The notes below the pieces were generated by a model. It saw nothing but the letters and a program-made list of their open reading frames with translations, had not been told where the DNA came from and ran no database searches. Below, one piece after another: positions 52,739 through 58,099 of a DNA stretch of 64,000 nucleotides. The stretch is from Scleroderma bovista. Taxonomy: Eukaryota > Basidiomycota > Agaricomycetes > Boletales > Sclerodermataceae. Position numbers and translations under genes: made by a program. The DNA lies in NCBI GenBank assembly GCA_037178675.1, contig JAYMGJ010000015.1, positions 46,291 through 110,290 of the forward strand, written 5' to 3'. Each line of letters starts with the position of its first letter. The first letter of the stretch is position 1.

Positions 52739-54022
52739 ATGGGAGACGACAAGGCTAGGGCACAGATCCTCAGGGATTGTCACAAGGAAATTCTGGATGC
52801 TAGCCAGGACCACCCATCCATCACCCTGCTGGATCATCTACAAATGGTGAGTACTGAGTATATTGACATCTACTTCGTATTTTCCTGACTTACCTTGTTC
52901 AATCCCAAGGCAATCAGGAAGGAGTACCTCAGACATCTTGCTGATTCTGATCAGGAAGATGAGGAGTCAGCCATTGATGCCAGTGAGGACAAAAGACACC
53001 ACATGAAAATATCCACAGAAGAACATGAACAAGCCACTTGTCCACAGAAGGTGGGGGATTACAGGAGACCGTGGGATGCCTTCCGAGCTGCCTGTAAACT
53101 TTTCAAGGACGAACTGGATGCCCTCGACAAAGCCTCCAGAGACCAGACTGATAAGTCGATGTTTGGGAAGAGAACGAAAACCACGCACGAGTGGTTCGAG
53201 GGGCTTTCCAAGGAGAAGAAGAGGGAAGCAGAGTTGGCTGCTGACAAGTGGAATCAGGAGGGCACACCAAAGCACCAGCAAGTTGTGTCAGTGTCTCATT
53301 GTCCATTCATATTTTATCTTCACACTTCTATTTTTCTAGTTATCGGAAAAAAAATATCAAACACATGTCAACCGAATTTTTATCATTGCTTAAATGTACA
53401 ATGGGAGTCCATGTGGTCATGTTGATTGGCTATGAGAAAGGGGAAAGTGTGGTGACCAATATGTGCATAAAGTCTTCTCTTTGCCACACAATTTGCTTAT
53501 TCAAATTCTTTGTATTAAGCTTGGAGGCTGAGCCCCCCAATTGTCAGTCCAAACCTTTTTCAAAGCACTCAAATGAGGCCAAGACCAGGGCAGCGGGAGG
53601 TGCAGATCTCATAGTGACCTATCTGCCACATCACAGTGTGTTGCATTTTGTACAGATATTTCTTTGCTAATGCAACCTACACAGAGTCAGACAAAAGTGG
53701 AAAGTCATTGGGTGAGGAAGAAGTCATACCTGACATCCCCTTGGATCGTTCAGGCAATCCAAGGCTCCCAGATCAATTGGGACTGAAGCTGAAAATGCAA
53801 CAGCTCCTTGTATGGGATATATTTAAGAAGGCCTATGGTGAGTTCACCTTGATCAACATGCACTTGATATGCATTGAGATAATCTTTTAGTGAAATTTAC
53901 TAAATCCTTGAGGGTCTCGGTTCCTTGGCTACTGCTTGCCAAGGATCCCGAAGAGTACATCAATTCTGACTGCTACCCTGAGGGATTCCTCATCCGAGAT
54001 CCCTCCAAACTCACCAAGATTA
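52739..54022 (+). pseudogene. 5' half of an unknown gene split by a Tc1/mariner-type element
   Basis: Apparent exons: 52739-52846, 52910 to about 53281, about 53341-53460, about 53660-53838 and 53889-54022, with usual introns (GTGAGT donors). The protein is charged (EYLRHLADSDQEDEESA), has PWDAFRAACKLFKDELDALD and WFEGLSKEKKREAELAADKW, then a hydrophobic patch (TMGVHVVMLIGYEKGESVV) and PRLPDQLGLKLKMQQLLVWD. The reading frame runs straight into the transposon at 54021-54022 (TA) and continues at 57018 on the other side. An in-frame TGA at 52736-52738 precedes the chosen ATG. The family seems to be multicopy in Agaricomycetes and its function is unknown; I infer that this copy is inactivated by the insertion. 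Confidence 0.6.
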
Positions 54023-54098
54023 CAGCTGTTTGCAAAAGATCGTGGAAAACGCGAAAACCAAATTCACCTGGCGGTAAGGACCCCAGAGGTAGCCCTAG
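54023..54098 (+). repeat. Left terminal inverted repeat of the transposon
   Basis: 76 bp starting CAGCTGTTTGCAAAAGATCG and ending at GGTAGCCCTAG. It matches the right end with three substitutions. The transposase presumably binds here. Confidence 0.95.
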
Positions 54099-54147
54099 AC
54101 ACACTTAGTAATAGTTTGTACTAGTCTTTCCTTCCTTGTCGTCTACC

Positions 54148-55674
54148 ATGTCACAGTCTCCTCCTCCTGGGGACAATGATGACCTGCAGTCTTTCTCTGT
54201 TTCATTGACGGTCTACTTGAAAGTCAAGAAAACAACACGTGGAAAGATGACGTCCAAGGAAGAGAAGTCCACCAAAATGAAGGAGCTTCTTTTCGCGCTC
54301 GATGATTCAAACTACCTCGAGTTTTTGCATAGTATCCTCCTCAAGCATGGACTGGAAAACTATCAAGTTTCTGACAAGAAGCACTTTCCGCTCAAGTATA
54401 TTCCACCCAAGACAAAAGGGTTTTTCTTCTTTCTTCGTCACACTTCAAGTGCAAATGGCTAACTCTCCCTGTAGGCAACGGACAAGTGATGCAATTGACG
54501 TTGATAACCTCAATGACTACAGAGAAATGGTGAAAAAAATTTCTGACAACCATCCGCCTGTTGTGAAGATCTTTGTTGATATGCGACACATCGAGAAGCT
54601 GCCTCGAGTCTCACAGGGCTCCGAGGATGACTCAGAACCCACCACTGATGGTGGTGCAGTACGTACAGTTACAGGTCATGGAATAATGCTAACATTTACA
54701 TTCACAGGGAACATCCTGTCATCCAAAGAAGGCTGATCTTGACAATCGCCTTGCTCGATGGCGCTTGAAGTTGGAAAAGGCCTACAAGAACGAGCATGAC
54801 GAAGGGCTCACGTATGTCGGCCCCCTTGGAGCAATCCCCTTGACACCTGCAATGATCCACGACTGGTGTCTGGCACTCGTAAGTCCTTGAATCACGACAT
54901 CTATTCATAAACTGATGATATTGCTAGGAGGATGGCCTGGCAACAATTGCTGTCCCACCGAACATTCCATCATTCAACCCCGCAAACAAAGCCCCAGTCC
55001 TCAACCCTGCACGCAAGGTTGCAACTCATTCACCGTCCCCCTCTGTTGATGTCAACTCTTTGACATCAGTCCTTTTATTGCAGACACTCGGTCAATCAGG
55101 TCTTCTTCAAGCTGCAGGCCAACCAATGGTACCTCAAACTCCACCTCGGGCTCAGGAAGCTCAGGTTGCCTCATCACCACCTGTCCCCTCTCCAACTCAA
55201 ATAGCACGCTATCTCCGGTATGCCGAGACAAACCTTGGTGTGAAGTATGCATCGTCATACAAGGCTGCCCTTGAAATGCATGGATTTGGGCCCAACATTC
55301 TCCCAGAGGTTGATGCCAAAGCCCTTTCTGATCTTGGTATCCCAGCAGGTGACGTGATCCGCCTGAAGAAAGGCAGCACAGCATGGTGGAATGGACCTAA
55401 TGCAAAGCGCAAGTGAAGCAACACATCAGCATCAGTCCCATTGGTCCCCGAGACTCAGGAGCCGCCTGCCAAGAAGCGAGTATCATACAACAAGCGGTAT
55501 CATGATGGAGGTGGCTGTCGTTTCAGTGGCCTTCCAATGCGAAAGGATGATGATGATGGGTTTGGGCCAGTAGATCGTGACTATGACCTTCTCTACTTCT
55601 GCGATACACAGAAACAGTGGCTCCCTGTTCCAGCTGGGTACATTATTGACAAGGAGGAGCCACAAGTGGATTAG
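54148..55674 (+). CDS. Transposon-borne SAM-like domain protein (in-frame TGA at 55414)
   Basis: Exons 54148-54419, 54475-54658, 54708-54878 and from 54928 join in frame; the first donor (GTTTTT) is weak, the others are GTACGT and GTAAGT. The protein has an N-terminal charged part (SLTVYLKVKKTTRGKMTSKE), an acidic middle, a LTPAMIHDWCLAL segment and, at about residues 305-371, a SAM-like helical domain (IARYLRYAETNLGVKYASSY, LSDLGIPAGDVIRLKKG, then WWNGPNAKRK). An in-frame TGA at 55414-55416 ends it at 371 residues. The same frame stays open for 86 more codons, with a conserved-looking tail (RVSYNKRYHDGGGCRFSG, YFCDTQKQWLPVPAGYII). SAM domains usually mediate protein-protein or RNA binding. 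It lies entirely inside the transposon ends, so I infer an accessory protein of the element; the TGA may have truncated this copy. Confidence 0.65.
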
Positions 55675-55806
55675 AAGTAGTCACATTGTTGCACTCTTTT
55701 TTTACTTCATGTCATACTAGTAGTTGCCACGAACACATGTTGAACCACGCAGAACAGAATGTGTGCACTAAATTTCACATAGACGATAGTACATATGTAG
55801 CTAGGT

Positions 55807-56860
55807 TTAGACAATGTACCCCGATGCCTTGTCTGGTGTGATGCTATGACACGCGTGAACAATGGACATAAGAGGTGGGTTAGTATGGGAGTGACGGCGG
55901 AGGTAAGCTTTGATGGCTGAAAAAGCTTGTTCAATCGGATTATAGTCTGGCGAGTAAGCAGGGAGATAAATGAGTTTGCAAACTAGGAAGTCAGTGTGAT
56001 CATTGTTGTGTTCAGAAGGGCAACTGTAACTTACGATTTTCCTCCTCAACTAAACGGCGAACTTCGTCACCATGGTGGATGCGGCAGTTATCCATAACAA
56101 GGACACTGCGAGGGCCAGGGTAGGAGTTTGTGAATGGCATCTACATTCGAATCATCCATCAACAAAATCAGTAAAGTGAAGCTCTTGAACTCACCACTTG
56201 GTCTTTGAGGAACTTGACAAATTGTTCTGTGTCGACTGGACCCTCTATGATGTCATAGGCAATGATTCCATCGAGTGTGAGGACTGGGATGATGGAATAA
56301 CGTGTCCCATGGATGAAGCGCCTCCGAGTGATGCAGCGAATGCCCCGTTTTGAGCGTCCAAATCTCCTGAATACCGTACGTTCATCTTTTGCAGCCTCAT
56401 CAATGAACATCAGCATGTTCGCGTCAGGAACCTCTTCAGCAATCTGATTCATATACAGTGCCCGCGATAATTGATTCCGTTCATAGGCACGAGCAGAGAC
56501 CATCTTGTGAGTAACACCAAGCTGCTTGAGGGTGTGAGAGAGGGTTGAAAGAGTGGTCTGAACATTGCGTTTGAGCTGCAGCTCCTCCAGTAATTCATCA
56601 AGGTAAATTGATCTCCGATGGTTGATGATAGCAGACAGGAAGGCATAGTCAGCTTGATTGAGGGCACGAGGGCGACCCACTGTGCACAAGTACTTGTAAG
56701 GATTTGAGACAGTGCCAAGTCGTTGATACTGGCCAAGAACATTGTAAACAAGTGTTTTTTTGATACCGAGCAAGTGACAGATATCTTTGACAGGATATCC
56801 CTCACGATAGAGGAATGGGATACGAGCCTTCAGGTCCTCTGAGGCGCCTTTGCGAGGCAT
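55807..56860 (-). CDS. Tc1/mariner-type DD-E transposase
   Basis: Three exons (56860-56195, 56140-56035, 55982-55807) with clean GTGAGT/TAG and GTAAGT/TAG introns give 315 residues with no stop or frameshift. The N-terminus holds two helix-turn-helix regions (GYPVKDICHLLGIKKTLVYN and LDELLEELQLKRNVQTTLS) for binding the inverted repeats. The catalytic acids are the Asp of MFIDEAAKDE, the Asp of VLVMDNCRIHHG and the Glu of YSPDYNPIEQAFSAIK, about 35 residues apart in the spliced protein. It should cut and paste the element at TA sites. It is transcribed from just inside the right terminal repeat, towards the accessory gene. The exon model is well supported because the joins rebuild the catalytic core. 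Confidence 0.92.
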
Positions 56861-56941
56861 GGGCAGGACGTTGTGGAAGGTGGGAAAGCCAGCCCGTACT
56901 GTAATTGTAGGACTAGTACAGATTACTAATAATAATGACTA

Positions 56942-57017
56942 CTAGGGCTACCTCTGGGGTCCTTCCCGCCAGGTGAATTTGGTTTTCGTGTTTTCCGCGA
57001 TCTTTTGCAAACAGCTG
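56942..57017 (-). repeat. Right terminal inverted repeat of the transposon
   Basis: Inverted copy of the left end, 76 bp with three substitutions, followed by the TA duplicate at 57018-57019. The transposase start codon lies 82 bp inside it. Confidence 0.95.
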
Positions 57018-58099
57018 TAACGTTGACAAACTCTGGCATCACTGGGATGAAAGAGAGAAGAAGAAGAAGGTTATATTACAGTTCATCAAGGCTAAGGCCA
57101 AAGATATGCCAGACACTGCCAAGGACAAGCCTAGGCGCTGTCAGCATAAGAGAATTTATGTCGATGTTGACAGTTCCTCAGACAACAGTGGCAATGATGA
57201 TGAATCAAACGAGGAAAGTGACCACAGTTCATCACACCCTGCTAATAGTCCCTTCCGCACACCCGGGTCTGCAAGTGGCTGGCCTTTGTGCCCTAAGCCA
57301 AGGCCCACCAAGCAGGCTAGGAAAGGTGAACCCAGGAGCCCAGCAGCTGAGGGGGGCAATTGGCCTACATTTCTCCATGGTCTTTGCCAGGATCCACACT
57401 ATGTGGTACTCATGGAGAAGATGTTCCACCTGCCGATCCAGGTAGGTATCATTTTCTAACGCATTACATACCTGACTAATTTTGGCTGTAGGAACTGATC
57501 TCGAGTCACCCCCTGCACTCCCAATTTGGGCTGCATGGACCTGGGGTCAGACATATCTCCCAGAAGAAATCCATACTTCTGTGGAGGCTTTCCAGGTTGC
57601 CCTCAGGCAGCTCAAGGAGTTTCCATGGAAGTCTCGCAAGTATGGCACATGCATTGTCTTGGGACTTGGCCTCCTCATTCGCGACTGCTGGAGTGTACAG
57701 GAGTTGGAGGAACCAGGGGATGGGGAGCAGAGGACTGCCCCCACTTACTTATATTCATCATTACTTGGTGTGCAGAAGTTGGAGTTTGTCTTTGCAGAGG
57801 TGGATGTGATGAGCGTGAGGTTGGACATGGAGCTATCCAGCCAAACAGGTGAGGGAAATGGAGGCAACAACACAGTGGACATGAGCAGACCAGAGGGGCA
57901 GAATGAAGAAGTGGGGGAGCAGGACACACAAGAAGAAGAGTGGACTGCCCAGGTGGAGAAGCAGAAGGAGGAGGAGGAGAAAAGACAAAGAGAGCAGGCA
58001 AATGCTGAGAAGAGGAGGCAGGAGGATGCACCTAAGGTGAGAGACGTGGTTGAGGAGGAGAGGTCGGTGCAAGCAAAGCGCAAGAAGTGCAAGGTATGA
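57018..58099 (+). pseudogene. 3' half of the gene split by the transposon
   Basis: Directly after the right TA the frame continues with VDKLWHHWDEREKKKK, then an acidic Ser-rich part (VDVDSSSDNSGNDDESNEES). After an intron at about 57440-57492 (GTAGGT...TGTAG) comes a well-formed segment (PALPIWAAWTWGQTYLPEE, VEAFQVALRQLKEFPWKSRK) and a Glu/Lys/Arg-rich coiled coil ending at 58099. The intron join does not keep the frame of the preceding exon, so either another splice form is used or this half carries an extra indel. It belongs to the same gene as 52739-54022. Without its promoter and start it is presumably dead. Function unknown. Confidence 0.55.

What the first reader, a model, noticed from the sequence alone, without database searches (positions are those of the whole stretch)
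54023..57017. Two-gene Tc1/mariner-type transposon with a SAM-domain accessory gene
Seen: 76-bp inverted repeats, exact TA duplication, intact spliced DD-E transposase, and a second spliced gene tail-to-tail with it, filling the element. Known: Tc1/mariner elements normally carry only the transposase. Inference: the SAM-domain protein, of a type I recall as multicopy in Agaricomycetes, is an accessory factor of the element (regulation, targeting or RNA binding), and its copies elsewhere may mark an undescribed element family.
Basis: partly seen in the sequence, partly recalled or inferred. Interest (0 to 1): 0.88.

Follow-up and report, generated by a model that had tools for sequence, protein, structure and literature searches.

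The report
Two-gene Tc1/mariner transposons with PB1-SAM partner
A jumping gene in this mushroom-type fungus carries, besides its usual cutting enzyme, a second protein built from two known self-assembly modules, and the same pairing recurs in many distantly related elements of the same genome, so the second protein is probably a working part of a little-known class of two-gene transposons.

Summary
The finding holds and is wider than stated. Window 54023-57017 is a Tc1/mariner-type element: inverted ends identical at 73 of 76 bases, TA duplication in a TTAA target, an uninterrupted spliced DD35E transposase and a convergent second gene. Two more full-length copies (97% DNA identity) carry both genes; paralogous empty sites were found for two of the three. 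Five own-genome searches list 41 places encoding the second protein; 36 lie tail-to-tail beside a transposase match, including families whose transposases are about 30% identical. Divergence of the two genes is correlated across ten families (Mantel r 0.88). Predicted folds of homologues show a PB1 domain, a conserved middle motif and a SAM domain. So it is not a chance passenger but the conserved second gene of a transposon clade; the papers I could search list no description of it. In the window copy the second gene has an in-frame TGA at codon 342 of 427, just after the SAM domain. Limits: all linkage comes from one genome; in other Agaricomycetes only homologous proteins were seen, not their neighbourhoods. 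The function, assembly or recruitment partner of the transposase, is inferred.

The parts
54023..57017 (.). Complete two-gene Tc1/mariner-type element (2995 bp)
   Evidence: paralogous empty site
54021..54022 (.). left TA target duplication (target TTAA)
57018..57019 (.). right TA target duplication
54023..54098 (+). left terminal inverted repeat, 73 of 76 identical to the right one
56942..57017 (-). right terminal inverted repeat
54148..54395 (+). second gene, exon 1 (start of PB1-like domain)
54475..54658 (+). second gene, exon 2 (rest of PB1-like domain, to about 54583)
54708..54878 (+). second gene, exon 3 (middle motif begins about 54804)
54928..55017 (+). second gene, exon 4 (PPNIPSF end of middle motif); may continue without the next intron
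55084..55674 (+). second gene, exon 5: SAM domain and C-terminal part
55189..55389 (+). SAM-like domain of the second gene (approximate)
55414..55416 (+). in-frame TGA in the second gene of this copy (CGA in copy C258)
56195..56860 (-). transposase exon 1 (HTH and first catalytic D)
56035..56140 (-). transposase exon 2 (second catalytic D)
55807..55982 (-). transposase exon 3 (catalytic E; DD35E)

Best explanation
The window holds one member of a clade of two-gene Tc1/mariner-type DNA transposons. One gene is a DD35E transposase that cuts at the inverted ends and inserts at TTAA with duplication of TA. The other, convergent with it, encodes a PB1 / middle motif / SAM protein that has been inherited together with the transposase through deep divergences. 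I propose that the second protein is a transposition partner: PB1 and SAM domains make homo- or hetero-oligomers, so the protein would assemble on the transposase or the element ends and help bring the two ends together, recruit the transposase or place it in chromatin, much as the second protein of Harbinger-type elements is thought to do (recalled). Shown: structure of the element, mobility as a unit, gene pairing in one genome, co-divergence, rough constraint between families, predicted folds. Inferred: that the protein oligomerises, that it touches transposase or DNA, and that transposition needs it.
For: Three full-length copies, each with both genes. Joined flanks of two copies match uninterrupted paralogous sites: C457 over 309 bases and C383 for the window copy, C300 and C294 for copy C733. 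36 of 41 second-protein places lie tail-to-tail with a transposase match. SAM-like model from 8 families: among 1507 control ORFs its only hit is the element's own gene; a left-out family was recovered for 7 of 8, not for A. Profile comparison of A-type with B-type proteins: probability 96.1, E 3.7e-9, at the middle motif. Same PB1-middle-SAM order in both predicted folds. Mantel r 0.88, p 0.0001, ten families. pN/pS window against C19: second gene 0.33 over 421 codons, transposase 0.39 over 311 codons. Family B element on C426: 3102 bp, ends 79 of 80 identical; three other B copies 98-99% identical over the stretch held.
Against: No biochemical or expression evidence. Linkage seen in one genome only. 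Some transposase places show no second gene: C353 (full exon 1), C673 (degenerate, 220 residues in pieces), C504 and C743 (192 residues each), C458 (a fragment) and several shorter fragments; C722 is cut by the contig end (against 11, 25, 26, 86, 87). Three second-gene places have no detected transposase and no explanation: C32, C476 and C233 at 35 kb. Synonymous sites are near saturation against C19 and C233, and among the three recent A copies pN/pS is 0.58-1.42, no sign of selection at short range. None of the three A copies has both genes uninterrupted. Family A's SAM domain is not reached by sequence models of the other groups.
Confidence: 0.6

Rival explanations
1. The second protein is an anti-silencing factor: its PB1 and SAM domains displace or sequester host silencing machinery, protecting the element from methylation-driven decay rather than acting in transposition.
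For: 61 of 73 transitions among the three A copies are CpG to TpG or CpA, so the host does erode these copies; other fungal DNA transposons carry TET/JBP genes that are proposed to counter methylation (Kojima 2025, PMC12730594, abstract and passages).
Against: The end domains look like interaction modules and no enzyme fold was recognised, though the middle part was not folded alone. Decay is visible in spite of the gene.
Confidence: 0.2
2. The second protein is a regulator that limits transposition, for example by co-polymerising with the transposase.
For: Oligomerisation domains and low copy numbers (3 full-length A copies; 4 B copies) fit a brake.
Against: A brake is not expected to be kept across such deep divergence unless it serves the element; not directly tested.
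Confidence: 0.12
3. Passenger gene: a host SAM-domain gene captured once by a Tc1/mariner element and carried along.
For: Many other transposons capture host genes (recalled).
Against: Pairing and convergent order are kept in three deep groups of transposases about 30% identical, with correlated divergence and rough constraint.
Confidence: 0.05
4. Two neighbouring genes of host origin trapped between unrelated repeats in one place.
For: None found.
Against: Three dispersed full-length copies with TA duplications, and empty sites for two of them.
Confidence: 0.01

Closest known systems
Tc1/mariner superfamily (Sleeping Beauty, DD34E/Tc1; DD35E/Traveler)
   Same: HTH plus DDE_3 transposase, TIRs, TA duplication; best solved relative is Sleeping Beauty (E 7.2e-5); DD35E spacing as in Traveler
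   Different: 2.98-3.10 kb with two convergent genes, against 1.3-2.4 kb and one transposase gene (PMC7093834, passages); spliced; TTAA context
Ciliate Tec and TBE elements
   Same: Tc1/mariner-type transposons with more than one ORF (PMC7325037, passage)
   Different: Tec carries a site-specific recombinase in its second ORF; no PB1 or SAM gene is mentioned in the passage
PIF/Harbinger-type two-ORF elements (PHIS: NuwaI, NuwaII)
   Same: DDE transposase plus a second protein conserved across the group (PMC4482050, passages)
   Different: Second protein has a Myb/SANT domain; different transposase superfamily
Fungal DNA transposons with TET/JBP, or IS3EU with alpha-kinase
   Same: Fungal DNA transposons with a conserved extra gene (PMC12730594, abstract and passages)
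   Different: Enzymatic cargo, other superfamilies; the words Tc1 and mariner do not occur in that main text
MarorTcMar-18 of Marasmius oreades
   Same: Agaricomycete Mariner-type family of 3,972 bp with a newly inserted 1,120-bp relative lacking protein domains (PMC9674265, passages); similar sizes
   Different: Coding content not given in what I read; relation untested

Membership tests
Tc1/mariner superfamily | TA target-site duplication | tested here: met
   TA on both sides in C15, C733, C258, C19, C426; paralogous empty sites for C15 and C733, known by alignment span, not read base by base
Tc1/mariner superfamily | terminal inverted repeats | tested here: met
   73 of 76; B element 79 of 80
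Tc1/mariner superfamily | DDE/D transposase with N-terminal HTH | tested here: met
   DDE_3 96 bits against a cut-off of 28.6; HTH_23 22 bits, below its cut-off of 24.6; D, D, E columns conserved in an 11-sequence alignment, one row with N at the second D
Tc1/mariner superfamily | single transposase gene, 1.3-2.4 kb (usual, not strictly defining) | tested here: not met
   two genes, 2995 bp
Tc1/mariner superfamily | place in the transposase phylogeny | not tested
   no tree with reference families was built
DD35E/Traveler | 35 residues between second D and E | tested here: met
DD35E/Traveler | single ORF element of about 1.5 kb | tested here: not met
piggyBac | 4-bp TTAA duplication | tested here: not met
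   TTAA target but only TA duplicated
SAM domain (second gene) | Pfam SAM model above cut-off | tested here: not met
   none at cut-off; SAM_EPH 19.5 bits against 27 for family B
SAM domain (second gene) | SAM fold | tested here: met
PB1 domain (second gene) | PB1 fold | tested here: met
PB1/SAM polymers | formation of oligomers or filaments | not testable with these tools
   needs protein work
Harbinger-like two-gene elements | Myb/SANT second protein | tested here: inconclusive
   no Myb model listed for 6 proteins scanned, but weak or fold-level similarity not excluded

The most novel reading that the evidence does not exclude
A whole clade of Agaricomycete Tc1/mariner-type transposons uses an obligate, self-polymerising PB1-SAM protein as a transpososome scaffold, so that transposition in this clade is a two-protein reaction governed by filament or condensate assembly, unlike the single-protein reaction of Sleeping Beauty or Mos1.
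Probability: 0.3. Interest if true: 0.86.

Novelty: new variant of a known kind. Interest (0 to 1): 0.73.

Why it matters
Tc1/mariner elements are the textbook one-protein transposons, which is often given as the reason why they work in so many hosts (recalled). A clade that keeps a second, PB1-SAM gene through deep divergence would raise the question why these elements need a partner, give a natural two-component Tc1/mariner system to study, and suggest that many multicopy 'SAM domain-containing' or hypothetical proteins in Boletales annotations are transposon genes rather than host genes.

Tried and rejected
Passenger gene and chance neighbourhood: rejected by the 36 of 41 pairing and by co-divergence. 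Read as a TTAA-duplicating (piggyBac-type) element: rejected, only TA is duplicated. Solo host SAM genes: 5 of 41 second-gene places have no transposase match beside them; C373 (80.5 kb) and C542 are truncated copies of the C19 element including its terminal repeat; C32, C476 and C233 (35 kb) are unexplained.

Family A was not recovered by the SAM model when A was left out, nor by the models of the two other groups; its link to B rests on the middle-motif profile match and the folds. The eight seeds of that model come from the loci it was then run on, so those hits are partly circular; the left-out runs are the fairer test. In one search the SAM stretch of family D was only 19 residues long and the C233 transposase piece 142 residues, so those two rows are weak. 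Foldseek alone gave no PDB match at E 0.001 or better for either model; the fold statements rest on VIA-align. Pfam found no PB1 or SAM at its cut-offs.

Other species: neighbourhoods could not be read. One scan of viral contigs, with the transposase, gave nothing; three searches with alignments could not be run. Comparing by eye the contig lengths of second-gene hits and transposase hits (120 of 330 listed) showed no coincidence. The third protein search scored only the best 7995 candidates and found 29 proteins. Muszewska 2017 (PMC5751038) is not held and was not read. Passages of PMC10799480 and PMC7386202 were read and held nothing on a second gene of this kind.

Full report
What is there. 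The element runs from 54023 to 57017, flanked by TA on each side inside a TTAA target. Its ends are inverted repeats with 73 of 76 identical positions. On the minus strand a transposase of 315 aa is spliced from 56195-56860, 56035-56140 and 55807-55982 without a stop. It scores 96 bits for DDE_3 (cut-off 28.6) and 22 bits for HTH_23 (below its cut-off of 24.6); D154, D239 and E275 give DD35E. Its best match among solved structures is Sleeping Beauty, E 7.2e-5. On the plus strand, tail to tail with it and 132 bp away, lies a second gene of five exons, 427 codons. In this copy codon 342 is TGA; copy C733 has it too and a further stop in exon 2, while C258 has CGA there and a 10-base deletion further on. 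A homologue from Pisolithus reads arginine at that place (P0001), so TGA is probably CpG decay. The stop falls just after the SAM domain.

It moves as a unit. The own genome (51.8 Mb, 850 contigs) holds three full-length copies at about 97% identity, on C15 (the window), C733 and C258, with different flanks. Joining the flanks of the window copy gives an open frame across the site, and this joined sequence matches C457 over 309 bases at 94% and C383 over its whole length at 90% without the element. The joined flanks of C733 match C300 (94%, whole length) and C294 (95%, 294 bases). A related element on C19, 2979 bp, has both genes, 30-bp exact ends and the same TTAA context. Four shorter elements of 1.06-1.28 kb and one of 3.1 kb have ends 97-100% identical to the C19 ends over 30 bp, with no match to either gene in the protein comparison.

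The pairing is general in this genome. Five searches with second proteins of different families list 41 places when rows of one place are joined by hand. In 36 a transposase match lies beside it in convergent orientation. This count includes C595, where only the last 40 residues are next to the transposase and the rest lies 20 kb away, and weak pairs such as C684 and C151. The five without are C373 at 80.5 kb, C542, C32, C476 and C233 at 35 kb. The reverse count: of 37 places where matches joined by hand cover about 200 residues or more of the 315-residue transposase, 32 have the second gene; C157 keeps a 25-residue remnant, C458 is a fragment, C722 is cut by the contig end, and C353 and C673 have none detected. 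Shorter matches were not counted; among them C504 and C743 (192 residues each) and several small fragments show no second gene. The genome searches score only the best candidates, so absence and totals are not final.

The second genes are related to each other. Families fall into three groups: A (C15, C19, C233), B-C-D (C426, C472, C69) and E-F-G-H (C354, C582, C535, C536). A SAM-like model from eight seeds, themselves taken from these loci, hits an ORF in 23 of 28 places scanned; the misses are L067 (cut by the contig end), L013 and L050 (gene lost or a remnant) and L040 and L042 (N-terminal fragments). In 1507 control ORFs from the window and nine other loci its only hit was the window's own gene. 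Leaving one family out, the model still found that family in 7 of 8 cases; family A was not found. Group B-C-D finds members of E, G and H at 6e-5 to 2e-3, not F. A and B are joined by a profile match, probability 96.1, E 3.7e-9, over 50 columns of the middle motif. Identities of transposases and of SAM stretches across ten families are correlated, Mantel r 0.88, p 0.0001, as expected if both genes descended together.

Selection. Between window and C19, pN/pS is 0.33 for the second gene and 0.39 for the transposase; against C233 it is 0.56 and 0.45. Synonymous change is near saturation, so these are rough, but both genes look similarly constrained. Among the three recent copies no constraint is visible (0.58-1.42), and 61 of 73 transitions are at CpG, with 7 transversions, so these copies are decaying.

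Who has it. Of 47 relatives of the window's second protein, 39 carry an organism name: 38 are from Pisolithus, Paxillus, Scleroderma, Boletus or Chiua (Boletales, order recalled) and one from Ganoderma. Of 29 proteins found with the mixed profile, the seven named ones are from Pisolithus, Leucogyrophana, Paxillus, Suillus and Pholiota molesta. Relatives of the transposase at about 50% identity occur in Mycena, Lyophyllum and Armillaria among others. The window's genome is therefore probably from Boletales, an inference. I could not see whether transposase and second gene are neighbours in those species; that is the main gap.

Known or not. Tc1/mariner elements are described as generally 1.3-2.4 kb with one transposase (PMC7093834, passages). 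Ciliate Tec and TBE have extra ORFs (PMC7325037, passages). DNA transposons with a second gene are known in other superfamilies (PMC4482050, passages; PMC12730594, abstract and passages). Nine searches for a SAM or PB1 gene, a second ORF or DD35E in fungal Tc1/mariner elements showed no such report among the titles and abstract starts listed: 1 of 1 listed; 20 of 20; 15 of 29; 4 of 5; 10 of 102; 12 of 136; 12 of 15; 10 of 81; 10 of 22. Most subscription papers and Repbase are not in that library.

Verdict. I hold the claim 'conserved second gene of a Tc1/mariner-type clade' at about 0.93, and the mechanism 'partner in assembly or recruitment of the transposase' at about 0.5. The figure of 0.6 given for the best explanation covers both.

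Noticed in passing
window 54023-57017 with its copies on C733 and C258: 61 of 73 transitions among the three copies are CpG to TpG or CpA, with 7 transversions: methylation-type decay.
   Followed up: partly
window 53773-54022 and 57020-57269: The element sits inside a gene that is itself multicopy: the joined flanks match eight further places in the genome. What that gene is was not worked out.
   Followed up: no
L014, L016-L019 (C254, C532, C406, C494, C503): Elements of 1.06-1.28 kb and one of 3.1 kb whose ends match the C19 family's 30-bp ends at 97-100%, with no detected coding match: non-autonomous derivatives.
   Followed up: partly
own genome, pattern TTACAGCNNTTTGCAAAAG: 38 of 40 matches keep T before the TA (the pattern allowed one mismatch in all, so this count is biased), and five insertions checked read TTA...TAA; the clade seems to prefer TTAA while duplicating only TA.
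   Followed up: partly
C595:65302-86707: Second gene split: its last 40 residues lie beside the transposase, the rest 20 kb away on the other strand, a rearrangement after insertion.
   Followed up: no
C32:30000-30611, C476:44465-44755, C233:35419-35775: Second-gene relatives without a detected transposase; C32 is open over 232 codons. Truncated elements or retained host copies.
   Followed up: no
C353:26905-27729 and C673:8506-9251: Transposases without a detected second gene; C353 has a full exon 1, 72% like family E, and is the clearest candidate for a transposase-only element; C673 is degenerate.
   Followed up: no
P0001, residues 400-448: The A-type model has an extra C-terminal beta domain that the B-type model lacks; the window copy's TGA removes it.
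   Followed up: no
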